Source: Aquibium microcysteis
Lineage (GTDB): Bacteria; Pseudomonadota; Alphaproteobacteria; Rhizobiales; Rhizobiaceae
Direction: 5' to 3'
Assembly (NCBI RefSeq): GCF_014495845.1
Contig: NZ_CP061080.1
Location: 795,001 to 859,000 of the forward strand
Length of the DNA stretch: 64,000 nt
Under the pieces are notes generated by a model. It did not search any database and was not told the DNA's origin. It was given only the letters and a program-made list of their open reading frames with translations. Numbering within the stretch: the first letter of the stretch is position 1; every line of letters begins with the position of its first letter. A program made the translations under genes and the position numbers. Below are positions 37,995 through 53,036 of the stretch, one piece after another.

Positions 37995-38051
37995 CGGGGA
38001 TGGCGGGCGGCGCCGGGACTGCCGCCACTGTCGCGTGGCGCCCCCCTCCTT

Positions 38052-38823
38052 CGTCATCCCGGAACGGCGTCCGAGCGGAGCGAAGGACGACGTATCCGGG
38101 ATCCATGCCTCGCCGTCGCCCACGAACGAGATGGTGCAGGAGAGTTCGCCGCACGCCGTCGCCTTTCTCCGCCGCCCAGCCTCCCGACGACTTCCGAGGC
38201 ATGGATCCCGGGTCTGCGCCTCCGCTTCGCTCCGGCTTCGCCCAGGATGACGAAGGCGAAGAGGACGCCGGTGTGACGATGCGGAAGCCGGGAAGGCGAT
38301 GGGTCTGACGCCGCTTCTTCCGCGCCGCCCCCCACCTTCGTCATCCCGGAACGGCGTCCGAGCGGAGCGAAGGACGACGTATCCGGGATCCATGCCTCGC
38401 CGTCGCCCACGAACGAGATGGTGCAGGAGAGTTCCCCCGACGCCGTCGCCTTTCTCCGCCGCCGAGCCTCCCGACGACTTCCGAGGCATGGATCCCGGGT
38501 CTGCGCCTCCGCTTCGCTCCGGCTTCGCCCGGGATGACGAAGGCGAAGGGGGCGCCGGTGTGACGATGCGGAAGCCGGAAAGGCGAACGGTCTGACGCCG
38601 CTTCTTCCACGCGCCGCCGCCCACCTTCGTCATCCCGGAACGCGGCGTCGAGCGGAGCGAGAGGCCGCGTATCCGGGATCCATGCCTCGCCGTCGCACGC
38701 GAACGAGATGGTGCAGGAGAGTTCCCCCGACGCCATCGCCTTTCTCCGCCGTCCAGCCTCCCGACGACTGCCGAGCCATGGATCCTGCGCCTCCGCTTCG
38801 CTCCGGCTTCGCCCGGGATGACG
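38052..38823 (+). repeat. Three tandem ~288 bp repeat units, each a long palindrome
   Basis: Units start at 38,052, 38,339 and 38,628 (spacing 287 and 289). Each begins CGTCATCCCGGAACG and holds GGGATCCATGCCTCGCCGTCG, a conserved CGAACGAGATGGTGCAGGAG centre and CGAGGCATGGATCCCGGG (degenerate in the third unit). Each ends CCCGGGATGACG or a one-base variant. About 86-88 bases of also-conserved spacer with GACGCCGCTTCTTCC separate the units. The arms of each unit are mutually complementary. Confidence 0.88.
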
Positions 38824-38851
38824 AAGGCGAAGGGGGCGCCCCCTTCAGGCC

Positions 38852-40570
38852 TCACGCCGCCTGCATCTGTCGTGCCGCGAACGCGTGGATCTCGATCGGC
38901 GCCTTCTTGCCCTTGACCGAGATCGGCGGCAGCGCGCGCGCGGCGTCGCGCAGCTTGGCCGGCAGCGCGTCGTAGACCACCCGCGACACCAGCGTCTGGT
39001 CTGGATCGGCCGCCGAGCACAGCCGCGCCGCCAGGTTCACGTGGTCGCCGAGCACGGTGAAGTCCTTGCGGTGGGTCGAGCCCATCGCGCCCACCACCAC
39101 CTCGCCGGTGTTGACGCCGATGCCGATCTTCAGGTCGGCCGAGGTCTGGCTCGCCATCTCGTTCATGGCGTTCATCATGCCGATGGCGCATTCCACCGCA
39201 TGCTTCGACATGTTGGCGCCGGCGAACACCGCCATGATCTGGTCGCCGACATATTTGTCGATGTCGCCATGATTGGCGGTGACGATGTCGGCGAGCTTCT
39301 GGAAATAGCTGTTCAGCACCGTGACAACCTCCTCCGGCTCGCGGTTCTCCGAGAACGCGGTGTAGCCGCGGATGTCGGCGAAGAGCACGGCCATCTGCCG
39401 CCGCTCGCCGCCGAGATGCACCGTGCGCGCGTCGCTGTCCTGGATCGCCCGCATGGTGCCGGCCGAGACGAATTTCTGCAGCTCGAAGCGCTCGTTCAGC
39501 TGCACGATCATGTCGTTGAAGCGGGTCGCCAGATCGCCGATCTCGTCGCGCGAGGCCACCCCGCGCACCCGGTGCGCGAGGTTGCCCTTGGCGATCTCCG
39601 ACGCCGCTTCGCCAATCCGCAGGATCGGCCGCGAAATGCCGAGCGCAAACAAAAGCGCGCCCGCCAGGGCGGCGACGAGCCCGATCGCCAGCCATTGTGC
39701 CAGGCTGCGGATCATGTCGTTGACGGGCGCATAGGCGTCCGCCTCGGCCTTTTCCGCCACCACCGCGAAGGGCAGGGCGCGCGTCAGCGCGATGGCGCCG
39801 AGCGAGATCGAGCCGTCGTCCAGCGTGAAGGGCTCCACCGCCACCGTCGCCGTGCCCGCAGCCAGCATGTCGCGCGCCTTGGCGAGCACGGCCGGCTGGT
39901 TCCACGGCTGGCCGTCGCTGGCGAAGACCACGCGCCCGCCGCCGTCCACCACATGGATCGACCCGGTCTTCGCGAAGGGGTTGCCCTCGACCGCGCCGCG
40001 CAGGCGGGCGAGGTTGACGCGCGCGTGCAGCGTCGCCGCCCGTTCGCGGATGCCGCCGGGGATCGGCAGGCTTACCGTCGCCAGCCAGTCGCCGGTCTCC
40101 TCGATCTGCACGACCTGCGCCGCCGACCGTCCGTCGGCGGGCATATCGAACTGGCCGGCATCCACCCGCAGCACGTCGAGCGGATTGTCGAAATGCGCCT
40201 TCAGCCTGTCGAAATAGGCTTCCTGCACCACGGTGATCGGCCGCGGCACGCCGTCGACGTCGACCTGCAGCACCACCACGTCGGGCAGGTCGGCGATGCC
40301 CTGGCGCAGCACCACGATCTTCTCCTCGAAGCCGAGCTGCTCGCCCGAGATCGCGTTGCGGATCAGGTCGAGCGGCGTGTAGAGCGAGTATTCGAGGAAG
40401 TCGTTGAATTCGCCGGTGACCTTGTCCACCGTCACGGCGAGCTGCTCGTTGGCCGCGCTCTTCAGTTCGTCGCGCGCCACGCGGATCACCGACTGGCCGG
40501 CCACGATCAGCGGCAGCGCCGCGATCACGGCGGTGAAGATCAGCATCTTCGCACGGAGGTTGAGGCGCAT
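38852..40570 (-). CDS. Membrane-bound adenylate/guanylate cyclase with sensor, HAMP and class III cyclase domains
   Basis: A 572-residue receptor cyclase predicted to make cAMP or cGMP. Helix 1 is at residues 9-27 and helix 2 at 291-312, enclosing a ~260-residue extracytoplasmic sensor that looks like a double-Cache domain (FLEYSLYTPLDLIRNAI, VVVLQVDVDGVPRPI, WLATVSLPIPGG). HAMP is about 312-364 (SRPILRIGEAASEIAKGN). The cyclase domain starts near 388, with metal-binding Asp399 in VLFADIRGYTAFSE and Asp443 in DKYVGDQIMAVF, and the later KDFTVLGDHVNLAARL. It lies 124 bp downstream of the PKD cluster on the same strand and may be its signalling output; that link is inference. Tandem repeats abut its 3' end. 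Confidence 0.9.
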   Translation of the reverse strand: MRLNLRAKMLIFTAVIAALPLIVAGQSVIRVARDELKSAANEQLAVTVDKVTGEFNDFLEYSLYTPLDLIRNAISGEQLGFEEKIVVLRQGIADLPDVVVLQVDVDGVPRPITVVQEAYFDRLKAHFDNPLDVLRVDAGQFDMPADGRSAAQVVQIEETGDWLATVSLPIPGGIRERAATLHARVNLARLRGAVEGNPFAKTGSIHVVDGGGRVVFASDGQPWNQPAVLAKARDMLAAGTATVAVEPFTLDDGSISLGAIALTRALPFAVVAEKAEADAYAPVNDMIRSLAQWLAIGLVAALAGALLFALGISRPILRIGEAASEIAKGNLAHRVRGVASRDEIGDLATRFNDMIVQLNERFELQKFVSAGTMRAIQDSDARTVHLGGERRQMAVLFADIRGYTAFSENREPEEVVTVLNSYFQKLADIVTANHGDIDKYVGDQIMAVFAGANMSKHAVECAIGMMNAMNEMASQTSADLKIGIGVNTGEVVVGAMGSTHRKDFTVLGDHVNLAARLCSAADPDQTLVSRVVYDALPAKLRDAARALPPISVKGKKAPIEIHAFAARQMQAA

Positions 40571-40694
40571 GCTGCAAATCCCGGCGGTGACGGAGGAATG
40601 CCGTGTCTGCGGGCGTGGCGACGGTACGACCGCGGCACGACGCGAAAGCGCGTCGGCACGATCCTCCCCGGGTCCCCACCCATCAGGCGAGGGA

Positions 40695-43600
40695 TCAGTT
40701 TAGACCCGAATCACCGGTTTCGGGAAGCAGCAGAGTCTGCGATCGCGACCGCGCGCGGATGGTGATCCTGTCGGTCGACACGCTGCAGTCCAGCCCGTGC
40801 GGGTCCGACGTCGTCAGTTCGACGGCGATGTCGCCCGGCTGCGTGATCTCCACGCGCGTCTTCTCGCCGTCGGCCTCGAAGCCGTTCGACAGCGTCCAGT
40901 AGTGGTCGAGCGCGTCGCCGTCGGCATCGCGCGAGCCGCTGGCGTCGAGCACATGGCTGTCGAGCGCGCCGCCGACGAAAAGGTCGACGTCCGGCCCGGC
41001 ATCGGCCACCGGCGGCGCGTTGACGAAGACCTCCAGCGTCTCGACAGTCGACGCGCAGGCAGAGCCCGACATGTCGGTGGCCTTCAGGCGCACCGCATAG
41101 GTGCCCGGCCTGTCGAAGGTGTGAGTGACCTGCGGTCCCGTCGCCAGGTGCCCGTCGCCGAAGTCCCAGTCGTAGCTGGCGATCGCGCCGTCCGCGTCGA
41201 AGGAGCGCGACGCGTCGAAGCGGACCGTCTGACCGGGGCAGGTCTTGCGCTCCGCCTCGATGATGGCGGCCGGCGGCCGGTTCACCTTCACCAGCCGCGC
41301 CACTGGCGTCAGCAGCACCTCGCCGGCGCGGTCGATCGGGCCCTTCACCGAAACCGAATAGGTGCCCGGCTGCGCGAAGACGTGCACGGCGGCCGGCCCG
41401 GTCGCATTGCTGCCGTCGCCGAAGCTCCACACCAGCGCGCCGGGGTCGGCAAGGCCTGGCAGGTTGGAGAGGCCAAAGGCGATGCGCTCGCCGGCACAGG
41501 CGGCATCGGCCGTCTCGATCGCGGTGCGCGGCGCGTCGGCCACGGTCACGTCGAACGTCGTCGCGTTCTCGGCATTGATCAGCCCGGTACCGTCGCTCAC
41601 CGTCAGCGTCACCGGGAAGGTGCCCGGCGAGCGCCAGATGTGCCGCACCTCGACGCCCGTCGCCGTGCCGCCGTCGCCGAAGTCCCAGCGGTAGGCGGCG
41701 ATGCCGCCGTCCGGGTCGACCGAGCCGGCAGCCGAAAGCTCGAGTGGCTGGTCCACCTCCACGGCCGCGTTTCCCGCCACCCTGGCCACCGGGGCGGCAT
41801 TGATCGTGATGACGTGGATCGTATCGGCGCTGGAACAGCCCTGGCTGTCCTGTCCCGACAGCGCCTTCAGCTGCACGCGGTAGGTGCCCGGCCGGTCGAA
41901 GGCATGCTTCACCACCGCCCCGGTGCCGGTCGTGCCGTCGCCGAAGTCCCAGGCGTGGCCGGTGACGCTGCCGCCGTCGAGATAGGAGGCGGTGCCGTCG
42001 AACACGACCTCCTCGCCCACGGCCGCCGCGCGGACCGCACCGATCACCGCGCGCGGCGCCGGCAGCACGGTCACCAGCAGGTCGTCGCTCGACACCGGCG
42101 AGCAGAGGCCGAGATTGTCGCCCTCGATCTGCAGCGTCACCCGGTAGTTGCCGGCGTCGGTGTAGGCGTGTTCGGGCTGGTCGCCGCCGCCGCTGGAGCC
42201 GTCGCCGAAATCCCACGAGAAGCGGTTGACGACGCCGTCGATGTCGGTCGAGCGGCGGCCGTCGAAGCGCACGGTGGTGTTGGCGCAGATCTGCCGGTCC
42301 TCGCCCGCATTGGCCACCGGCGCGGGCAGCACGGTCACCAGCGTCTCGGCCGAATGGGTGCCGTTGGCGAGCCCTGATTCGTCCGTGACCGTCAGGCGCA
42401 CGCCGAAGGTCCCGGGCGTCTCGAAGGTCTTGGTCGGGTTGATGATGTCGGAGGCCGCCCCGTCGCCGAAATCCCAGGCATAGCGCAGCAGCCCCTGGTC
42501 GGGGTCGCTCGACGAGGAGCCGTCGAACACGACGACGTCGCCCACGCAGGCCTGGCGGTTGTCGCCGGCGATGGCCAGCGGCGCGCGGTTGATGCGCACC
42601 GTCATCGCATCGCGGTTCTGCGAGTTGGACAAGCCCTTCCCGTCGTCCACGGTCAGCAGCACCGGATAGACGCCGCCGGTCTGGTAGGTGTGCTCCACCA
42701 CCGGTCCGATCGCCGTGTTGCCGTCGCCGAGATCCCACAGATAGGCCAGCCCGTCATTGTCGGCGTCGGCCGAGGCGGTGGCGTCGAAGACGATGCGCAG
42801 CGCCTCCGAGAACACGTCGCGGCCGGCTTCCGCCACCGGCTGGTGGTTGACGAACACCGTCATCTCGTCCTGGGCGGTGCGGTTGGCGGCGCTGGAATCG
42901 TCGGTCACCGTCAGCGTCACCGTGTAGACGCCAGGCGCGTCGAAGCGGTGCTCCACGTTGGCGCCGTCCAGCACCGTACCGGTCTCGTTGACGTCCCACC
43001 GCCAGGCCGTGACGGTGCCGTCCCGGTCGCTCGACCGGTCGCCCGACAGCCGGAACGGCTCGCCCGGCGCCACCACGAGATTGGGACCGGCCTGCGCCAC
43101 CGGCGCCTCGTTCACGGTGACGCGGATCTGCGAGAAATCGCTGGCGTTCGGGTGGCCGCTGTCGTCGTCCACCGTGAGTTCGACCGTGTAGGTGCCGGGT
43201 CGCGCGAAAGCGTGTTCCACCACCTCGCCCTCGGCCGTTGTGCCGTCGCGGAAGTTCCAGGCGTGGCGGGTAATCCTCCCGTCCGGGTCTTCCGAGCGGC
43301 GGCCGTCGAAGGAAAGCGTCTCGCCGGGGGCGGCGACCATGTCGAAGCCGGCATCGGCGACCGGCAGCGCGTTGACCCGGACCGCCATGGTATCGGTCGC
43401 GCCGTTGCGGATCGTGCCGGAATCATCCGCGACCGACAGTGTCACGGTGTAGGTCCCGGGGCTGCGATAGGTATGGGCGATCGTCCGGCCGTCGCCGCTC
43501 TCTCCGTCGCCGAAATCCCAGCGATAGGTCGCGATCGTGCCGTCGCCGTCGGTGGAGCCGCCCGCGTCGAAATCGACCACCGAGGCCGTGACGTGCTGGT

Positions 43601-46600
43601 CGGGTCCGGCGTCGGCCACCGGCGGCTGGTTCACCAGGATGCGCCGCTCCGCGCTCGCCCGGTCGTTGGCGAGGCCCGAATCGTCGGTGACGGTCAGCCG
43701 CGCGACATAGAGCCCCGGGCGCGCATAGCGGTGCACGACGTCGCGACCGCCTGCGGTGGTGCCGTCGCCGAAGTCCCAGTCATAGGCGAGGATGTTGCCG
43801 TCCGGATCCTCCGACGCGGCGCCGGAAAACGCGATCGGCTCGTCGATCGCGGCCGGCCGGTCCGGCTCCACCCGCGCCACGGGCGCAAGGTTCGGCCGGT
43901 CGGCCACGGTGACGGTGAGCGTGTCCGACGCGCTCGCATTGTCCTGGCCGGAACCGTCGGTGACGGTCAGCGTCACCGTATAGGTCCCCGGCCGGTCGTA
44001 GACGATCGAGCGTTTCTGTCCCTCCGCCCGCCTGCCATTGCCGAAGTCCCAGAGGTAGCCGACGAGATTCGAATCGGTGTCGGTCGACCCGCCGCCGTCG
44101 ACATCGATGCGCTGGCCGACGATCGCCGCCACGTCGGGCCCGGCCTCTGCCACCGGCTGCGCGTTGCGCCGCTCCTCCACGAAGGCGACGAACTTCTTTT
44201 CGGTGACGCCGCTGTCGAGGCCCGAATCGTCCACCAGCGTCAGCTTGCCGAAATAGGTGCCCGGCGCGGCATAGGCATGCGCGATCGCCGCTTCCGTCGA
44301 CACCGTGCCGTCACCGAAGCTCCATTCGTTCCGTGTGACGCGACCGTCCGGATCGGCGGCCCCGCGCGCATCGAACAGATGCGGCACGCCGGTCTGCAGC
44401 GTGAGTTCGGGCGCCACCGCCCCGTCCGGCGGTTCGTTGTAGGGATGCGTGACGGTGACGGTGAAGCGCGCCTCGGCCTCCGAGCCGCGCCGCCCGGAAT
44501 CGTCGCGCACCAGCACGTGCACCTCATAGGCGCCCGGCCGCGCATAGGCGTGCCTGGCCTCGAAGCCGGAGGCCTTCGCCCCGTCGCCGAAGTCCCACTC
44601 CACGGCCACCACATTGCCGTCCGGGTCGGTCGTGCCGGTCGCGTCGAAGGGGATGATCTCGTTGACGAAGGCGGCGCGGTCGCCGCCGACGCGCACCTGC
44701 GGCGACAGGTTCTGCCGATTGTCGACGATGACGTCGAAACCCGTGCTGGCCACGGCGTTCTCGCGGCCGGAATCGTCTTCCACCGTCAGCGTCGCGCGAT
44801 AGGTGCCGGCGACGTGGTAGACATGGTCGACGGCGAGCCCTTCCGCCGTCGCGCCGTCACCGAAATCCCAGCGATAGGCGAGGATCGAGCCGTCCGGATC
44901 GCGGGAGCCCGAGCCGTCGAAGCGCACCACCGCGCCCGCGACCGCCTCGCGGTCGCCGCCCGCGTCGGGGATGGGCGCATCATTGCCCGAATCGACCACG
45001 GTGAAGCTGCGCTCGATCGTCGTCGTGCCGTTCGCCAGCCGCGAATCATCGGTGACGGTCAACGTCACACCATAGGTCCCCGGCGCCGAAAAGCTGCGCC
45101 GTATCACCGGCTTGTCGGAGGTCGTGCCGTCGCTGAAGCGCCATTCGGTGGCGATGATCCGCCCGTCCGGGTCGGTCGCCGCCGAGGCGTCGAACAGCCC
45201 GGGCGCGCCGGCAACCAGCCGGTCCGGCGTCCTGGCCGCCGTGGCGTCGGGCGCGGCGTTGACGAAGACGCCCGCCGCCGCGCGGGCGACGCTGTTGGCC
45301 GCGCCACGGCCGTCGTCGACCGTCAGCGACACGGCATAGGTGCCGGGCCGCGCATAGCGATGCGCGACCGCCGCGCCTGCAGCCGTCGTCCCGTCGCCGA
45401 AATCCCAGGTGAATGCGTGCGTGTCGCCGTCCGCCCCTTGCGGGCTGCCGGCGTCGAAGGCGATCTCTTCGCCGAACGCGATGCGCCTGTCGCCGCCGGC
45501 ATTGGCGACCGGCGGCGCATTGACGGAGATCATCCGCGTCGCGACCGCCTCGTTGCACGGGTTGCCGGAGGAGTCCGTCACCGTCAGCGTCACCGTGAAG
45601 CTGCCGAAGCGGTCGTAGCGGTGCACCGGCCGGCCGAATCCGGGCTCGCCCGCCTCCTGCACCAGCACCGTGCCGTCGCCGAAATCCCAGCGGTAGCGCG
45701 CGATCTCGGTGCCTTCGGGCAGGGCCGGGCTCGACGAGCCGCGGCCGTCGAAGGCCACCTCCGCCCCCTGCGCCACCAGCCCCGGCGCCTCGAACACGGC
45801 AAACGGCGGCGGCTTGACGAAGAACGAGAACGCCCGGGCCGCACCGCTCGCCACCTGGCCCGACGCGTCGAAGCCTTCCAGCCGTCCGTCCTGAACGCCA
45901 TACTCGGGGAAATTCTGCGTCACCGTCTCGCCCGTCACCCAGCCAGCGTCGGCACCGAGCTTCCAGCGATAGGTCAGCGCCCCGCCGTCGGGGTCGGCCG
46001 AGCCTGCGGCCGAGAAGCGGATCTCGCGGCAGGCGAGCGGCTCGACCGACAGCGAAAGCACGGGCCGCCGGTTCGGCGGCACGGCACGGATCGGCAGTTC
46101 GACGGCGAGCGGCCGCTCGGTGCCGGCCGCATCCAGCGCGGTGACGAACAGCGTCATGTCGTTCGGCGTCTCGGAGCCGTTGGTGGCGGTCACCGAGCCC
46201 GGTCCGCCGGGCTCGTCGGCGTCGAGTTCGACGTCGGAGCCGCGCCATTCGTTCTTGCCGGAGGCGGCCAGCACCCGGCTGCGGAACGGCCCGCCATAGG
46301 TGATGCGCCCGCCGGCCGCGTCGAAATTCTCGACCCGCACCGCCGTGGCATCGGCCGGAACCACAAACCGCATCTCGCCGAGGTCGCGGCCGGCCGGCAC
46401 CTGGATGGTCGGGATCAGTGTCGACAGCCGCGCGCCGGCGATGGCCTCGTTCCGCGCGTCCGACGAACTCGCCGCCACGTCGAAGACGTTGCCGTCATTG
46501 CCCGACAGGCCCTCGACGACGAGCATGAACTCGCGCCCGCCGGCGATCTCGATCCCGGACGAGGCCTCGGCCGAAAACAGCGTCGTCCAGCGTCCGTCGG

Positions 46601-47072
46601 CGGCGGCATCCGTGCCGAAGTCGATGGTGCCGAGCGGCGTTCCCTCGATGCGCTCCTGCGGAACGCCGTCGCCGTCGCGTTGAATCACCGCGCGAGCGCC
46701 CGCGCCGAACAGGCTGAATCGAATCGCCGAATCATAGCCGCCCTTGGCCTCGTCGAAGGCGCCGCCGGTGTCGGGATCGAACACCCGCAGATGGACGCGA
46801 CCGGCATCGGCCGGCACCAGCACCCGCACCACCTGGCGGAAGTCGTGATCGCCCTCGTTGACCCGTGCCAGCGGTCCGAAGACGACGAGATGCGGCTCGG
46901 CCGGCTCGTCGCGCATCATCGCGAAGGCCGTGAGCCGGGGCATCGCGTCGGCGATGGCGTCCGCGTTCACGTAGAGACCCACCGGCGCCAGCACCGAGCC
47001 CATGCCGGCGGCCAGCAGCGCGGCGTTGCGTCCGGCGCGGGTGGCAAGCAGCCTGGCGAGGAGGGCGCGCAT
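40695..47072 (-). CDS. Giant PKD-repeat surface protein (2,125 aa)
   Basis: A very long, probably exported beta-sandwich protein. A hydrophobic segment near residues 16-35 (NAALLAAGMGSVLAPVGLYV) can act as signal or anchor. It is followed by about 500 residues nearly identical to the next gene upstream (EPHLVVFGPLARVNEGDHDF...). Then come some 18-19 PKD domains, recognised by repeats of YxWDFGDGxxxxG followed by HxYxxPGxYxVxLTVxDDSG. No C-terminal anchor, sortase-like or autotransporter motif is visible; the protein ends RSRSQTLLLPETGDSGLN. PKD domains usually mediate protein or polysaccharide contacts at the cell surface. The start shares one base with the upstream gene's stop (TGATG), indicating translational coupling. 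Long open frames on the opposite strand are composition effects. Confidence 0.85.
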   Translation of the reverse strand: MRALLARLLATRAGRNAALLAAGMGSVLAPVGLYVNADAIADAMPRLTAFAMMRDEPAEPHLVVFGPLARVNEGDHDFRQVVRVLVPADAGRVHLRVFDPDTGGAFDEAKGGYDSAIRFSLFGAGARAVIQRDGDGVPQERIEGTPLGTIDFGTDAAADGRWTTLFSAEASSGIEIAGGREFMLVVEGLSGNDGNVFDVAASSSDARNEAIAGARLSTLIPTIQVPAGRDLGEMRFVVPADATAVRVENFDAAGGRITYGGPFRSRVLAASGKNEWRGSDVELDADEPGGPGSVTATNGSETPNDMTLFVTALDAAGTERPLAVELPIRAVPPNRRPVLSLSVEPLACREIRFSAAGSADPDGGALTYRWKLGADAGWVTGETVTQNFPEYGVQDGRLEGFDASGQVASGAARAFSFFVKPPPFAVFEAPGLVAQGAEVAFDGRGSSSPALPEGTEIARYRWDFGDGTVLVQEAGEPGFGRPVHRYDRFGSFTVTLTVTDSSGNPCNEAVATRMISVNAPPVANAGGDRRIAFGEEIAFDAGSPQGADGDTHAFTWDFGDGTTAAGAAVAHRYARPGTYAVSLTVDDGRGAANSVARAAAGVFVNAAPDATAARTPDRLVAGAPGLFDASAATDPDGRIIATEWRFSDGTTSDKPVIRRSFSAPGTYGVTLTVTDDSRLANGTTTIERSFTVVDSGNDAPIPDAGGDREAVAGAVVRFDGSGSRDPDGSILAYRWDFGDGATAEGLAVDHVYHVAGTYRATLTVEDDSGRENAVASTGFDVIVDNRQNLSPQVRVGGDRAAFVNEIIPFDATGTTDPDGNVVAVEWDFGDGAKASGFEARHAYARPGAYEVHVLVRDDSGRRGSEAEARFTVTVTHPYNEPPDGAVAPELTLQTGVPHLFDARGAADPDGRVTRNEWSFGDGTVSTEAAIAHAYAAPGTYFGKLTLVDDSGLDSGVTEKKFVAFVEERRNAQPVAEAGPDVAAIVGQRIDVDGGGSTDTDSNLVGYLWDFGNGRRAEGQKRSIVYDRPGTYTVTLTVTDGSGQDNASASDTLTVTVADRPNLAPVARVEPDRPAAIDEPIAFSGAASEDPDGNILAYDWDFGDGTTAGGRDVVHRYARPGLYVARLTVTDDSGLANDRASAERRILVNQPPVADAGPDQHVTASVVDFDAGGSTDGDGTIATYRWDFGDGESGDGRTIAHTYRSPGTYTVTLSVADDSGTIRNGATDTMAVRVNALPVADAGFDMVAAPGETLSFDGRRSEDPDGRITRHAWNFRDGTTAEGEVVEHAFARPGTYTVELTVDDDSGHPNASDFSQIRVTVNEAPVAQAGPNLVVAPGEPFRLSGDRSSDRDGTVTAWRWDVNETGTVLDGANVEHRFDAPGVYTVTLTVTDDSSAANRTAQDEMTVFVNHQPVAEAGRDVFSEALRIVFDATASADADNDGLAYLWDLGDGNTAIGPVVEHTYQTGGVYPVLLTVDDGKGLSNSQNRDAMTVRINRAPLAIAGDNRQACVGDVVVFDGSSSSDPDQGLLRYAWDFGDGAASDIINPTKTFETPGTFGVRLTVTDESGLANGTHSAETLVTVLPAPVANAGEDRQICANTTVRFDGRRSTDIDGVVNRFSWDFGDGSSGGGDQPEHAYTDAGNYRVTLQIEGDNLGLCSPVSSDDLLVTVLPAPRAVIGAVRAAAVGEEVVFDGTASYLDGGSVTGHAWDFGDGTTGTGAVVKHAFDRPGTYRVQLKALSGQDSQGCSSADTIHVITINAAPVARVAGNAAVEVDQPLELSAAGSVDPDGGIAAYRWDFGDGGTATGVEVRHIWRSPGTFPVTLTVSDGTGLINAENATTFDVTVADAPRTAIETADAACAGERIAFGLSNLPGLADPGALVWSFGDGSNATGPAAVHVFAQPGTYSVSVKGPIDRAGEVLLTPVARLVKVNRPPAAIIEAERKTCPGQTVRFDASRSFDADGAIASYDWDFGDGHLATGPQVTHTFDRPGTYAVRLKATDMSGSACASTVETLEVFVNAPPVADAGPDVDLFVGGALDSHVLDASGSRDADGDALDHYWTLSNGFEADGEKTRVEITQPGDIAVELTTSDPHGLDCSVSTDRITIRARSRSQTLLLPETGDSGLN
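45484..46898 (-). repeat. 1,415 bp block shared by the two PKD genes (downstream copy)
   Basis: This block matches 48,417-49,831 with a constant offset of 2,933 bases at both ends, meaning no net insertion or deletion. It encodes the common N-terminal module and the first PKD domain. Differences are scattered single bases. Outside the block the two genes diverge quickly. Confidence 0.85.
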
Positions 47073-49939
47073 CAGTCCTGCCCCCCGCGCGCTTCGGCCG
47101 TGGTCACCGTCACGGTGATCGTGTCGCTCGAGGTCATGGCCGGCTCGCCATCGTCGGTCACCGTCAACTCGACGGTGTAGACGCCCGGGTCGTGGAAGGC
47201 GTGGCGGGGTGCGGCGTCGGGCGAGGCGCCGCCGTCGCCGAAGCTCCAGCGCCAGGCGAGCACGTTGCCGTCCGGGTCGGACGAATCCCGTCCTTCGAGT
47301 TCGATGATCTCGCCCGTGGCCACCATCCGGTCGGTGCCGGCCCGCGCCACCGGGGGCTGGTTCGGGGCAGGGGCGACCGTCACCGTGACGCTGTCGGTCG
47401 CCGTCAGCCTGTCGTGCGGCCCGTCATCCGCGACGGCGAGCGTCAGCGTATAGACGCCGGGAAACTGGTAGACGTGCCGCGCGCGGATGCCGGACGCCGT
47501 GTTGCCGTCGCCGAAATCCCAGCTGTGCGTCAGGATCGAGCCGTCGGGATCGCGCGAGGCCGAGGCGTCGAAGGCGATCTCCGCGCCCGCTACCGCCGCC
47601 ATGTCGGGACCGGCGGCCGCGACCGGCGGCAGGTTCGGCCGGTCGGCCACGATCACCGTGAAGGGGAAGGACACGACCGCCGGCTCCGGCAGGCCGTTGT
47701 CGACGAGGTCGAGCCGGGCCTCGTAGAAGCCCGGCTTGCGGTACATGTGCTCGATGACGGGGCCGAGCCCGGTCGCGCCGTCGCCGAAATCCCATCGATG
47801 GGCGATGATCGAGCCGTCGCGGTCGCTCGCCGCCGAGGCGTCGAGCCTGAGCGCCTGCCACGTCGTGGCGGCGAATTCGCGCGGGAACGTCGCCACGGGC
47901 GGCCGGTTTTCGGCCGGCAGCACGGTGATCTTCGCCGTGTCCACCGCCCGTTCGCCGCCGCCCGGCCCGTCGTCGCGCACCGTCAGCGTCGCGGCATAGG
48001 TGCCGGGCTGCCACCAGGCATGCTCCATCGCGGGCAAGTCGCCGCCGCTGCCGTCGCCGAAATCCCAGGAATAGAACAGGATGCGGCCGTCCGGATCGGT
48101 CGAGCCGCCCCCGTCCATGCGCACGGCCTCGCCGGCCCGGACGGTCCGGTCGCCGCCGGCCTCGGCCACGGGGCGCTGGTTCGCCCGCTCCTCGACATGC
48201 ACCTCGATCACGTCGACGCCCTTGGCGCTGTCGAAGGCGGTATCGTCGAGCACGGTCAGGCTGACGCGGTAGATGCCCGGGCGGTGGAAGGCATGCGGCA
48301 CCACGGTCCCGCTTGCCCGTGTGCCGTCGCCGAAGTCCCAGAGGGTGGAGACGATCCGGCCGTCGGGGTCGCGCGACAGCGCGGCGTCGAAACGGTGAGT
48401 TTCGCCCACCGTCAGCCGCCTGTCGCCGCCGGCATTGGCGACCGGGGGTGCGTTGACGGAGATCATCCGCGTCGCGACCGCCTCGTTGCACGGGTTGCCG
48501 GAGGAGTCCGTCACCGTCAGCGTCACCGTGAAGCTGCCGAAGCGGTCGTAGCGGTGCACCGGCCGGCCGAATCCGGGCTCGCCCGCCTCCTGCACCAGCA
48601 CCGTGCCGTCGCCGAAGTCCCAGCGGTAGCGCGCGATCTCGGTGCCTTCGGGCAGCGCCGGGTTCGACGAGCCGCTGCCGTCGAAGGCCACCTCCGCCCC
48701 CTGCGCCACCAGCCCCGGCGCCTCGAACACGGCCACCGGCGGCGGCTTGACGAAGAACGAGAATTCCCGGGCCGCACCGCTCGCCACCTGGCCCGACGCG
48801 TCGAAGCCTTCCAGCCGTCCGGCCTGAACGCCGTATTCGGCGAAGCCCTGCGTCACCGTCTCGCCCGTCACCCAGTCAGCGTCGGCACCGAGCTTCCAGC
48901 GATAGGTCAGCGCCCCGCCGTCGGGGTCGGCCGAGCCCGCGGCCGAGAAGCGGATCTCGCGGCAGGCCAGCGGCTCGACCGACAGCGAAAGCACGGGCCG
49001 CCGGTTCGGCGCCACGGCGCGGATCGGCAGTTCGACGGCGAGCGGCCGTTCGGCTCCTGCCGCATCCAGCGCGGTGACGAACAGCGTCATGTCGTTCGGC
49101 GTCTCGGAGCCGTTGGTGGCGGTCACCGAGCCCGGTCCGCCGGGCTCGTCGGCGTCGAGGGTGACGTCGGAGCCGCGCCATTCGTTCTTGCCGGAGGCGG
49201 CCAGCACCCGGCTGCGGAACGGCCCGCCATAGGTGATGCGCCCGCCGGCCGCGTCGAAATTCTCGACCCGCACCGCCGTGGCATCGGCCGGAACCGTGAA
49301 CCGCATCTCGCCAAGGTCGCGGCCGGCCGGCACCTGGATCGTCGGGATCAGCGTCGACAGCCGCGCGCCGTCGATGGCCTCGTTCCGCGCGTCCGACGAA
49401 CTCACCGCCACGTCGAAGACGTTGCCGTCATTGCCCGACAGGCCCTCGACGACGAGCATGAACTCGCGCCCGCCGGCGGCCTCGATCCCGGACGAGGCCT
49501 CGGCCGAAAACAGCGTCGCCCAGCGCCCGTCGGCGGTGGCATCCGTGCCGAAGTCGATGGTGCCGAGCGGCGTTCCCTCGACGCGTTCCTGCGGAACGCC
49601 GTCGCCGTCGCGTTGAATCACCGCGCGAGCGCCCGCGCCGAACAGGCTGAATCGAATCGCCGAATCATAACCGCCCTTGGCCTCGTCGAAGGCGCCGCCG
49701 GTGTCGGGATCGAACACCCGCAGATGGATGCGACCGGCATCGGCCGGCACCATCACCCGCACCACCTGGCGGAAGTCATGGTCGCCCTCGTTGACCCGTG
49801 CCAGCGGCCCGAACACGACGAGATGCGGCTCGAAGGGTTCCTCGGCCCGGCCGGCCGCGGGAGCCAGCAGCAGCACTGCGATTGCGGCACCGGCGAGCGA
49901 TCGGCGAAGGCGGAGCGCGGACAGGCGTGCCGCGCTCAT
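47072..49939 (-). CDS. PKD-repeat surface protein (955 aa), paralogue of its neighbour
   Basis: An exported protein with a clear signal peptide (SLAGAAIAVLLLAPAAGRAEE, residues about 14-34). A ~500-residue module shared with the 2,125-residue neighbour is next, then about six PKD domains (WDFGDGTRASG, WDFGDGSGG, WDFGDGATGLG and others). The shared module contains LFGAGARAVIQRDGDGVPQE and FMLVVEGLSGNDGNVFDV, which suggests beta-rich carbohydrate- or protein-binding folds, but I do not recognise a named family. The ATG overlaps the stop of the FecR-type gene by 4 bp (ATGA) and its own stop overlaps the next start, so three genes form one coupled operon. Confidence 0.85.
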   Translation of the reverse strand: MSAARLSALRLRRSLAGAAIAVLLLAPAAGRAEEPFEPHLVVFGPLARVNEGDHDFRQVVRVMVPADAGRIHLRVFDPDTGGAFDEAKGGYDSAIRFSLFGAGARAVIQRDGDGVPQERVEGTPLGTIDFGTDATADGRWATLFSAEASSGIEAAGGREFMLVVEGLSGNDGNVFDVAVSSSDARNEAIDGARLSTLIPTIQVPAGRDLGEMRFTVPADATAVRVENFDAAGGRITYGGPFRSRVLAASGKNEWRGSDVTLDADEPGGPGSVTATNGSETPNDMTLFVTALDAAGAERPLAVELPIRAVAPNRRPVLSLSVEPLACREIRFSAAGSADPDGGALTYRWKLGADADWVTGETVTQGFAEYGVQAGRLEGFDASGQVASGAAREFSFFVKPPPVAVFEAPGLVAQGAEVAFDGSGSSNPALPEGTEIARYRWDFGDGTVLVQEAGEPGFGRPVHRYDRFGSFTVTLTVTDSSGNPCNEAVATRMISVNAPPVANAGGDRRLTVGETHRFDAALSRDPDGRIVSTLWDFGDGTRASGTVVPHAFHRPGIYRVSLTVLDDTAFDSAKGVDVIEVHVEERANQRPVAEAGGDRTVRAGEAVRMDGGGSTDPDGRILFYSWDFGDGSGGDLPAMEHAWWQPGTYAATLTVRDDGPGGGERAVDTAKITVLPAENRPPVATFPREFAATTWQALRLDASAASDRDGSIIAHRWDFGDGATGLGPVIEHMYRKPGFYEARLDLVDNGLPEPAVVSFPFTVIVADRPNLPPVAAAGPDMAAVAGAEIAFDASASRDPDGSILTHSWDFGDGNTASGIRARHVYQFPGVYTLTLAVADDGPHDRLTATDSVTVTVAPAPNQPPVARAGTDRMVATGEIIELEGRDSSDPDGNVLAWRWSFGDGGASPDAAPRHAFHDPGVYTVELTVTDDGEPAMTSSDTITVTVTTAEARGGQD
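48417..49831 (-). repeat. 1,415 bp block shared by the two PKD genes (upstream copy)
   Basis: Partner of 45,484-46,898; see that entry for the alignment. The block stops just inside the signal-peptide region, so the two proteins keep different N-termini. Confidence 0.85.
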
Positions 49940-52368
49940 CGCACCAGCTCCACCTGGCTGACATTGCCGGCCACGTCGGCGAGTTCGACCACGATGGTGA
50001 CGACGTCGCCCGCGGCGCGGCGCGGCAGCTCGACCGTTCCCTGGTAAACCTTGCGCGCCCGGTTGTAGCGCAGCACGCCGTCCTTCTCGGCCGTGCCCGA
50101 CCGCACCGCATAGCGGGAGGTCTGCGCGAGGCCGGAGGCATCGGTGGCGCCGATGCGGATCTCGAACAGCTCGGTTTCGCCGCGATCCTCGACGGAAACC
50201 TCCTGCGCGGTAACCGCCGGCCGCTCCGTGTCGTAGACGACGGTGCGCTTCTCGATGGTGACCAGCCCGACCGGGTTGGTGGCGACGATCTCGATCGTGT
50301 TCGCGCCCTGCACGAGCGCGACCTCGCCGCTGGCGACGCCGCCCGCCATGGCGAAGGGGGTGCCGTTGACGGCAACCCGGTTGGCCGGGTCGGTCTCGAA
50401 GGCGAGCGGCAGAAGAGCGCTGGCCGTGACCTGGGGCAGGGGCTCCGTCGGCCGCAGCCGTGGCGCCTCGTCGAGGATCGCCGCCGCGATGGTCTCTTCA
50501 TAGGCGTAGCCCGACACGGTCGTGACGCGGATCGCGAGGTCTTCGCCGCGCGCCGACAGGGGCACATTGAGCGCGAACCGGCCGTCGGCGGCGGCGATCG
50601 TCTCCGAACGCGGCGTGCCGGCCGCGCCGAACACGGAAACGCGAGCGCCTCCGATGACGGTGCCGGCCAGCGACAGCACCTCGTTGGCCGAGAGGAACCG
50701 CCCCTCGGCGTCGCGCGGCAGCGAACGGTCGTAGAGGATGTCGGCGCGCTGGTCGGCGACGTAGTCGAAGGCGATGCGCCGCTCGGTCTCGTTGCCGGCC
50801 GTGTCGCGGGCAACCACGGCGACGTCGTTCAGTCCTTCCCGCGCGTCGATGGTGAGGTAGAAGCGGCCGCTCTGGTCGATGTCGGCCACCGCCCCGTCGA
50901 TCAGCACCGCGGCGCCCGCCTCGGTCTCGCCCGAGATCGTGACCGCCGCCTCACGCAGCACCGCGCCCGGTTCAGGCGTCCTGATCTGCAGGAACGGCGG
51001 GGTGTCGTCGGTGCGCAGCTCGAACTTGCGCACCGAGCTCATCTGGCCGGGCAGGCCGAAATCGTCGAGCGCCGCGACGCGCCAGAAATAGGTGCCGGGC
51101 GGCAGCGGATGATCGTCGAGCCGGTTGGTCTCGATGCCCCACAGGCTGTCCGCCATGCGGTCGAAGCGGCCGTCATGGGCGATTTCGATCCAGTAGCCGC
51201 CGCTCGTCTCGGCCGCGTCCCAGCCGAGATCGACGCTGCCGCCATAGACCACGGCCTCGTCGGCCGGCGTCTGCAGCGCGATTCGCGACTGGATGCCGAT
51301 CTTGCGGCCGGGCTTCTGGCCGGGCCGCACCACCGTGCCCTCGTTGCGCCCGAGCACCAGCGTCTCGTCGCCCGCCGTGATCGCCACCGGCCGCACGTCG
51401 TAGTTCGAGAACTTGGCGCCGTCTGCGTCCTGGCTGACCCAGAAGCTGCCGGAATCGATCTTGGCGTCGACGTTTTCCAGTTCGACCTGGAGCTGGTTGC
51501 GGTCGCTTTCCGTGGCGAGCAGCGCGTAGAAGTCGCCTTCCACCAGGCTGATCTTGGCCTCCTCGCGCCGCTTCAGCGGATCGACCCGCATGCGCTGGAT
51601 CACGGCCTGCGAATTGGCGTTGAGCCGCAGCCGGCTGGCGTCGCGGAACACCACCTGCGCGGTCGAGCGCGACAGCGTGCGCAGCTTCTCCTGCTCGTTG
51701 AGGATGGCGTTGAGGTCGCGCTCCGACCAGCTGTTCTCCGACGTCTTCTGTCCCTCGACCCAGCCCTGGCGGTCGCTGAGCCGCGCCTCGGCCTCGACGT
51801 CGCGCTGCTCCTCGCTCTTCAGCCGTGCCGCCTCGGCGCGGTTGATGGCGCGCGACGACAGGTCGATGCTCTCGACATAGATGCCCTCGCGGTCGCGCAC
51901 CGTCGCCTCGTCGCGAAACTCGATCGCGTTGCGGATCAGGATCGGCGCATAGAGCTGTGCGCCCGATTCGTTGGCGCGCTGGATCTCGGACAGCGAGGCG
52001 TCGAGCGCCGACGCCGACAGCCGCTTCTGGTTGCCCGGAAGCAGAAGCTCCTGGCCGATGGCCAATTCGGTGATGTCGCTGACATTGTTGACGCTGAGGA
52101 TGATCGGCCAGAGATCGGGATTGTCGAGATAGCGCTGCGACAGAGTCCGCAGTCCGACGCCCGGCTCGAGCCGTACCTTGATGAAGTCTTCGGCCCCAGC
52201 GGTGGCCGGCTGGGCGCTGGCGGGGACGGCGCAGGCGAAGGCGAGCAACAGCGACAGGCCGCAGGCCCCGAGCCGCTTCAGGCCCGCCCGCCGTCTTCCG
52301 CCTTGACGCTCGTCGCCGATCGTCACGCCCCAAATCCCCGCCCGCGAAGCGATCTCAGCCAGGACCAC
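49936..52368 (-). CDS. LysM-FecR domain surface protein with Ig-like domains
   Basis: An 810-residue exported protein. A signal peptide is at about residues 32-53 ([21 protein letters not shown]). A LysM-type peptidoglycan-binding domain follows at about 61-112 ([20 protein letters not shown]). A FecR-like domain comes next, with [22 protein letters not shown] and [12 protein letters not shown] in the 220-300 region, and then several bacterial Ig-like/fibronectin-like domains ([44 protein letters not shown]). The start is GTG at 52,368; a second in-frame GTG at 52,326 would give a more compact signal peptide and may be the true start. It is the first gene of the operon with the two PKD proteins, and could tether them to the wall. 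Confidence 0.82.
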
Positions 52369-52616
52369 TCGTTACCGTTTACGCTCTGGTAACCATACGG
52401 AATGCGGCGCTGGGAATCCAGTCGCAAAAACACGGTCTTGCGCACCGAGAATGTCCCAAAACAGGACAGATATCAGGGACTTGGCTCAAATACCGCAGGT
52501 TGAGGAGAAGCTTCGCAGGACGCTGCCGCCCAGCCCCTTGGCGACGCGGCCCGTCCCGAGCGGGGACGGGGACTGCGTCCGGACATGCGGGGACGTCAGA
52601 CGCCGGGCCGGACGTG

Positions 52617-52967
52617 TCAGACCGAGAAACTCGTCCCGCAGCCGCAGGAAGCGACGGCATTCGGATTGCGGATCTGGAAGGACTGGCCGATCAGATCGTC
52701 GACGAAGTCGATCACCGAGCCGCCCATGTAGATCAGCGACATCTCGTCGATCAGCACCGTGGCGCCATCGCGCTCGATGGCGACGTCGTCGTCGTTGCGT
52801 TCGGCCGTCAGGTCGAACTTGTAGGAGAATCCCGAGCAGCCGCCGCCCTCCACCGAGACCCGCAGCGCCGTCTTGTCCGGTTCGCCCGACACGATCCTGA
52901 CGATCCGCTTTGCGGCCGCCTCGGTCAGTTCCACGCCCTTCATCGAAATCTTGGCGTCGCTGCCCAT
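52617..52967 (-). CDS. erpA: Fe-S cluster carrier/insertion protein, ErpA/IscA (HesB) family
   Basis: A 116-residue A-type carrier that delivers iron-sulfur clusters to target enzymes. The three ligand cysteines are present: one in [13 protein letters not shown] and two in [11 protein letters not shown] at the C-terminus. [13 protein letters not shown] near the start and [19 protein letters not shown] in the middle are typical. The ATG at 52,967 gives standard length; an ATG 15 codons upstream adds non-conserved residues. It is divergent from dgt with 69 bp between starts, the usual arrangement in this order. erpA versus iscA cannot be separated with certainty by eye. Confidence 0.9.
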
Positions 52968-53036
52968 GGCATCACCTTGCTTTTGCGATACGACGATAGG
53001 TATGAAGCGCATCGGGGCAAGTCAACCGGCAGGGGC

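What the first reader, a model, noticed from the sequence alone, without database searches (positions are those of the whole stretch)
38852..52368. LysM-FecR / PKD / PKD cluster linked to a sensor cyclase: candidate undescribed envelope system
A wall-binding LysM-FecR protein and two PKD-repeat proteins (955 and 2,125 aa) are joined by 4 bp and 1 bp overlaps. A Cache-HAMP-class III cyclase follows 124 bp later on the same strand. This suggests a large surface assembly anchored to peptidoglycan whose state or ligand is reported by cyclic nucleotide. I know FecR-LysM proteins near cyclases in this order of bacteria, but not this full set with a giant PKD protein.
Basis: inference. Interest (0 to 1): 0.75.

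Follow-up and report, generated by a model that had tools for sequence, protein, structure and literature searches.

The report
Conserved wall-bound PKD adenylate-cyclase gene module
Four linked genes encode a probable cell-wall-binding protein, two long chains of Ig-like (PKD) domains and a membrane enzyme predicted to make the signal molecule cAMP; the set is kept together in distantly related bacteria and looks like an undescribed way of telling the cell about its envelope.

Summary
The order recurs in 11 complete four-gene loci; five three-gene loci (FecR, one PKD, cyclase) include two Skermanella plasmids. Of 247 family genomes the same ten carry FecR, PKD head and cyclase; one fragmented assembly shows only part of a cyclase. 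Flanking genes are shared almost only by near relatives. The first ~265 residues of the PKD head match no solved structure by sequence. PKD1 and PKD2 heads are nearly identical within 4 of 11 genomes although their tails are 33-39% identical, pointing to concerted evolution. The catalytic residues are those of an adenylate cyclase. Surface location and cAMP reporting are inference; a periplasmic place is as likely. FecR proteins beside CHASE2 cyclases or kinases are published, and this genome has such a locus too, so this is a new variant of that theme. Against strict unity: Desulfonema and a Thiomargarita MAG split the parts over loci, and three Desulfobacterota loci have a PilZ gene where the cyclase would be.

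The parts
49936..52368 (-). LysM-FecR protein with Ig-like tail (longest ORF; likely start 52326)
52033..52185 (-). LysM-like region of the FecR protein (approximate)
   Evidence: LysM called in homologues, not in the window protein itself
51415..51687 (-). FecR domain (PF04773)
50773..50997 (-). Glucodextranase-B / bacterial Ig-like domain
47072..49939 (-). PKD1, 955 aa: signal-like N-terminus, head domain, 7 PKD_4 stretches
48857..49834 (-). PKD1 head (326 aa modelled): all-beta, ending in the start of a PKD-like domain
40695..47072 (-). PKD2, 2125 aa: signal-like N-terminus, head domain, 20 PKD_4 stretches
45924..46901 (-). PKD2 head, 96% identical to PKD1 head
48410..49822 (-). stretch of PKD1 (residues about 40-510) nearly identical to PKD2
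38852..40570 (-). Cache-HAMP-class IIIb adenylate cyclase, 572 aa
39701..40483 (-). predicted periplasmic Cache-like sensor between two TM helices
39494..39649 (-). HAMP domain
38900..39397 (-). cyclase catalytic domain
40571..40694 (-). 124-bp gap between PKD2 and cyclase genes
52369..52430 (-). conserved block upstream of the FecR gene (candidate promoter/leader)
   Evidence: no sigma-70-type match there

Best explanation
The four genes form one operon-like module for envelope-to-cytoplasm signalling. LysM-FecR is exported and holds the complex to peptidoglycan. PKD1 and PKD2 are exported rods that share one head domain, through which both dock on the same partner (FecR tail or cyclase sensor); the PKD arrays reach along or through the periplasm. 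The Cache domain of the cyclase reads the state of this scaffold, or a ligand that it presents, and through HAMP sets the rate of cAMP synthesis, which then acts on CRP-type regulators. Shown by computation: gene order, co-occurrence, near-identical heads, domain make-up, adenylate-cyclase residues. Inferred: export and place, physical contacts, the signal, cAMP production and the regulator.
For: Co-occurrence: in 41 relatives the same 6 carry PKD, FecR and cyclase; in 247 family genomes the same 10 carry all three strong matches; in 190 class genomes the same 2 carry cyclase and PKD head. Order kept in 11 complete four-gene loci and 5 three-gene loci, mostly with 1- or 4-bp overlaps. Flanking genes shared almost only between near relatives. 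Heads 87-100% identical (82-100% at third positions) within 4 of 11 genomes and pairing by genome in 7 of 10 genomes in a tree, while tails match by gene. Adenylate-cyclase residues kept in 45-46 of 46; catalytic fold like CyaB, CyaC, Cya2. FecR orthologues present in 7 of 7 distant genomes with a PKD head, twice beside the cyclase. Precedent: FecR proteins clustered with CHASE2 cyclases or kinases, and such a locus in this same genome.
Against: No direct evidence of protein contact, cAMP output or co-transcription. Correlated distances (r 0.935-0.983, 16 loci) are expected from shared descent alone. Three Desulfobacterota loci have PKD then PilZ without a cyclase; Desulfonema and Thiomargarita split the set. 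Heads group by gene in 2 of 10 genomes and are unresolved in 1, and are only 32-65% identical per 60-residue window in 7 of 11. Gene conversion could be a neutral result of tandem copies. Cyclases with 36-37% identical sensors exist in Ruegeria, Lutimaribacter and Tropicibacter whose neighbours I could not inspect.
Confidence: 0.5

Rival explanations
1. The PKD and FecR proteins are a structural or adhesive product (wall-retained matrix or envelope girder). The cyclase senses a small molecule on its own with its Cache domain and is linked only so that the product and its control are inherited together.
For: Cache domains usually bind small ligands (established knowledge); dCache_1 in 28 of 46 family members. 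The cyclase gene is the least tightly coupled in two-PKD loci (gaps 16-149 bp, the start placed by homology in three of the 11). In three Desulfobacterota loci PKD is followed by PilZ, not cyclase. The FecR tail profile matches chain 2yn3, E 2.8e-4 (that this is the adhesin SiiE is recalled).
Against: In three-gene loci L053, L056 and L092 the cyclase start overlaps the PKD gene by 4 bp (start placed at the homologous Met in L053 and L056). FecR lies directly beside the cyclase, without PKD between or next to them, in two genomes.
Confidence: 0.3
2. The PKD heads bind glycans (wall, LPS or exopolysaccharide), so the module is a polysaccharide sensor; cAMP then controls surface polysaccharide.
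Confidence: 0.15
3. Chance neighbourhood of unrelated envelope genes.
For: None found; long GC-rich ORFs can look linked.
Against: Order, overlaps and co-occurrence across genera and classes.
Confidence: 0.01

Closest known systems
CHASE2 adenylate cyclase + phosphodiesterase + FecR-domain outer-membrane protein + TPR protein cluster of Campylobacterota (PMC9239204; passages seen)
   Same: FecR-domain envelope protein clustered with a sensor adenylate cyclase
   Different: Sensor is CHASE2; the passages mention no PKD or LysM protein. Here the sensor is Cache-HAMP and there are one or two PKD proteins with a shared head domain
BiofilmReg operon of Burkholderia: response regulator, LysM-FecR protein, CHASE2 histidine kinase, DUF4136 (PMC5192318; passages seen)
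   Same: LysM-FecR protein in an operon with a membrane sensor; smallest form is just these two genes
   Different: Output is a two-component system; sensor CHASE2; the word PKD does not occur in the text
Second locus in this same genome, L126: TPR/SlipAM-like 472 aa, 1555-aa FecR protein, CHASE2 cyclase
   Same: Large FecR protein next to a sensor class III cyclase
   Different: No LysM or PKD match in Pfam at E<=0.01; similarity to the window FecR protein weak and in and around the FecR domain (E 0.009)
Class IIIb cyclases CyaB (P. aeruginosa), CyaC (S. platensis), Cya2 (a guanylyl cyclase); class name recalled
   Different: Other sensor domains (recalled)

Membership tests
Class IIIb adenylate cyclase | two metal Asp, Lys and Thr for adenine, Asn-Arg pair (assignment recalled) | tested here: met
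   D399 46/46, K439 45/46, D443 45/46, T505 45/46, N512 45/46, R516 46/46
Class IIIb adenylate cyclase | cyclase homology domain fold | tested here: met
Class IIIb adenylate cyclase | makes cAMP | not testable with these tools
   needs assay
dCache sensor | Cache domain between two TM helices | tested here: met
   met by homology only: dCache_1 in 28 of 46 family members, no match in the window protein itself; model shows a long N-terminal helix and two alpha/beta parts; the fold search barely tested this part
LysM-FecR envelope protein with sensor partner (BiofilmReg / COG4254 type) | LysM plus FecR plus signal-like N-terminus | tested here: met
   FecR; LysM in 4 of 15 family members and 12 of 120 listed homologues, not in the window protein; hydrophobic N-terminus
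LysM-FecR envelope protein with sensor partner (BiofilmReg / COG4254 type) | CHASE2 partner | tested here: not met
   partner has HAMP and a Cache-family sensor, no CHASE2 match
LysM-FecR envelope protein with sensor partner (BiofilmReg / COG4254 type) | COG4254 assignment | not tested
   no COG library on hand
FecR anti-sigma regulator (FecI-FecR-FecA; features recalled) | cytoplasmic anti-sigma part before a TM helix; ECF sigma and TonB receptor genes beside it | tested here: not met
   only an N-terminal signal-like hydrophobic segment; no sigma or TonB gene among the neighbours scanned. By contrast another FecR gene of this genome lies beside a TonB receptor (L127)
PKD-domain protein | PKD domains | tested here: met
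   PKD_4: 7 and 20 stretches
Carbohydrate-binding jelly-roll family for the head | clear structural match to a named CBM family | tested here: inconclusive

The most novel reading that the evidence does not exclude
A wall-anchored strain or spacing gauge: LysM-FecR fixes the complex to peptidoglycan, PKD rods of two kept lengths with the same head bridge to a second site, and tension or distance between the two is read by the Cache domain and turned into cAMP. This would be a mechanical envelope sensor with cAMP output.
Probability: 0.1. Interest if true: 0.9.

Novelty: new variant of a known kind. Interest (0 to 1): 0.6.

Why it matters
What FecR-domain envelope proteins do beside sensor cyclases and kinases is open. 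This module gives a compact, conserved set with a testable head domain, two rods that differ in length but keep the same head, a predicted second-messenger output, and sequenced hosts (Aquibium, Mesorhizobium sp. L-8-3, Skermanella plasmids) in which deletions could be tried. A PilZ gene in the cyclase's place in some relatives hints that the same envelope part may be wired to different nucleotide signals.

Tried and rejected
FecI-FecR iron signalling: rejected, no sigma or TonB gene among the scanned neighbours and no anti-sigma topology. Sortase reading of the LPETG near the PKD2 C-terminus: rejected, no hydrophobic stretch follows it, and of the relatives only the nearest (L018) has it. Lipoprotein anchor: no conserved lipobox Cys seen by eye. 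Sigma-70 promoter in the 124-bp gap: none found. Sequence search of the head profile against solved structures matched only positions 266-319, its PKD part, in the best rows; fold comparison gave middling Z, so a new fold is not claimed. Foldseek of the head model in 'pdb' never ran. No signal-peptide predictor was on hand; the hydropathy scan found an N-terminal segment in 7 of 9 FecR/PKD proteins (not in PKD1 of G001 nor PKD2 of G023). An uncleaved membrane anchor in PKD2 is not excluded. That scan also gave a third peak (254-272) in the cyclase, which is strand in the model.

Own errors: the cyclase of L094 was read in a wrong frame, so the FecR-cyclase and head-cyclase values there, and the cyclase tree, are void; one search is the corrected run and had no permutation test. 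In one search I placed some starts by homology rather than taking the longest ORF: PKD2 of L050, PKD of L056, and the cyclase of L038, L044, L053, L056 and L094 (and FecR of L053 and L056, which does not affect the spacings).

Papers: nine searches ran. Searches gave 0 papers; one search gave 3, all term-searched; one search gave 22, 12 listed, of which only PMC5192318 was opened; one search gave 119, 10 listed, one opened (PMC6390638: outline, and 0 occurrences of FecR, PKD, cyclase, LysM, PilZ). Only open-licence papers are held, no preprints.

Full report
What is there. Four minus-strand genes follow each other: LysM-FecR (49936-52368), PKD1 (47072-49939), PKD2 (40695-47072) and a cyclase (38852-40570), with spacings of -4, -1 and +124 bp. 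Upstream on the same strand lies a Fe-S_biosyn gene (52617-53012), with an HD-domain gene and argS on the other strand; downstream are IalB (plus strand), a solute-binding protein and DsbA (minus strand). The window lies in a 6.1-Mb single-contig genome. A congener's contig of 290,010 bases is that of Aquibium sp. ELW1220, so the genus is probably Aquibium (Phyllobacteriaceae).

It is a unit. Among 41 relatives the same 6 genomes match PKD1, FecR and cyclase, and 35 match none of them (cyclase at E<=1e-40). Among 247 family genomes, drawn from a larger group, the PKD head is in 10 (E<=1e-30); FecR is in 16 at E<=1e-3, of which the same 10 are full-length and six are partial (E 7e-7 to 9e-4); the cyclase is in 11 (E<=1e-60): the same ten plus G109, where the match runs off a 4.5-kb contig of an assembly of about 770 contigs. 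Among 190 class genomes cyclase and PKD head are each in 2, the same two; FecR lies beside them in the second. FecR itself was not searched class-wide.

A scan of named genomes with the PKD head found 23 loci, which I count as 20 assemblies. From: FecR is beside PKD, or split from it by a contig end, in 17 of 20 (not in L052, L054, L057). The cyclase is beside PKD in 13 of 20; in 3 (L041, L048, L049) the contig ends first; in 3 (L052, L054, L055) a PilZ gene is found instead; in L057 another ORF follows and the contig ends. Complete four-gene loci: window, G001/L017, L038, L039, L040, L042, L043, L044, L045, L050, L094, that is 11 genomes, three of them (L040, L042, L043) close kin. Three-gene loci: L053, L056, L090, L091, L092. 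In the four-gene loci FecR-PKD1 spacing is -4 or -1 in 10 of 11 (42 in L050); PKD1-PKD2 is -4 or -1 in 9 of 11 (12 in L045; -4 in L050 only with a start that I placed); PKD2-cyclase is 16 to 149, with the cyclase start placed by homology in L038, L044 and L094. Skermanella mucosa and S. rosea carry FecR-PKD-cyclase on plasmids. Flanking genes in the stretches held match between near relatives (window/G001; L040/L042/L043; L090/L091; L053/L056); otherwise there were two lone hits, L044 to L038 and L044 to L039. So the set mostly sits at different sites. As a further check, 14 of 51 longest-contig lengths of at least 10 kb in the cyclase list equal one in the FecR list (from, whose FecR list shows 120 of 372); equal length is taken to mean the same contig.

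Results against strict unity. Desulfonema magnum has FecR-PKD (L114), cyclase-FecR (L115) and PKD-PilZ (L052) at three places; the Thiomargarita MAG has cyclase-FecR (L119) on another contig than PKD (L057). FecR orthologues are in 7 of 7 such distant genomes. In three Desulfobacterota loci the next recognised gene after PKD is PilZ (in L052 a 101-aa mechanical ORF lies between). In the gamma MAG L051 the order is a divergent, cut-off cyclase, then PKD, then FecR. Cyclases with 36-37% identical sensors are listed for Ruegeria, Lutimaribacter and Tropicibacter; I could not see their neighbours.

Two heads kept alike. Residues about 61-480 of PKD1 match PKD2 of the same genome at 87-100% (amino acids, per 60-residue window) and 82-100% (third positions) in 4 of 11 loci (window, G001, Mesorhizobium L-8-3, G232), and at 32-65% (amino acids) in the other 7. 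G232's contig length is that given for Nitratireductor mangrovi. In a tree of 20 heads from 10 of these genomes (L042 left out) the two copies pair by genome in 7 (six with starred support, L039 at 86/84), by gene in 2 (MnEN and Flavimaribacter) and are unresolved in 1 (L044); the PKD1 label needs 8 changes, no fewer than most shuffles. The tails do the opposite: PKD1 tails are 51-70% and PKD2 tails 58-74% identical between five genomes, but PKD1 and PKD2 tails only 33-39% within each of eight genomes. One old duplication with later gene conversion of the head explains this best; selection for a common partner is my inference, and neutral conversion is not excluded.

How it may work. I favour a wall-bound scaffold that governs the cyclase: LysM-FecR ties to peptidoglycan, both PKD proteins dock by the same head, and the Cache-HAMP cyclase turns scaffold state or a presented ligand into cAMP. 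Contacts, place of the rods (no anchor seen by eye), signal, cAMP production and regulator are all inferred.

Known relatives. FecR proteins cluster with CHASE2 cyclases in Campylobacterota (PMC9239204, passages) and LysM-FecR with CHASE2 kinases in Burkholderia (PMC5192318, passages); in Sinorhizobium meliloti a FecR-domain protein is among the targets of the cAMP regulator Clr (PMC5498481, passages). The window's genome has a CHASE2-cyclase/FecR/TPR locus as well. So the theme is known; Cache in place of CHASE2, the PKD proteins and their head are the new parts. No paper on this set turned up in the nine searches.

Noticed in passing
window 38034-38897: Three nearly head-to-tail copies of a 287-nt repeat (95% and 61% to the reference) downstream of the cyclase gene, the third overlapping the last 46 bp of its ORF.
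   Followed up: no
L052:15728-16126, L054:5420-5797, L055:15586-15939: PilZ-domain genes after the PKD-head gene in three Desulfobacterota, where other lineages have the cyclase.
   Followed up: partly
L126 (G000:C1:95000-112000): Second sensor-cyclase locus in the same genome: TPR/SlipAM-like protein, 1555-aa FecR protein, CHASE2 cyclase.
   Followed up: partly
window 45483-49822: PKD1 and PKD2 heads look subject to concerted evolution in several genera.
   Followed up: yes
PKD heads, alignment A6: Strongly conserved Asp/Asn/Gly-rich motifs (EGDxD, FDPDxGGxxD, GNDGNVFD) might be a metal site; not tested.
   Followed up: no
L090, L091: The three-gene form lies on 308- and 329-kb plasmids of two Skermanella species.
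   Followed up: partly
window 52369-52430: Block upstream of the FecR gene strongly conserved among three congeners, without a sigma-70 match.
   Followed up: no
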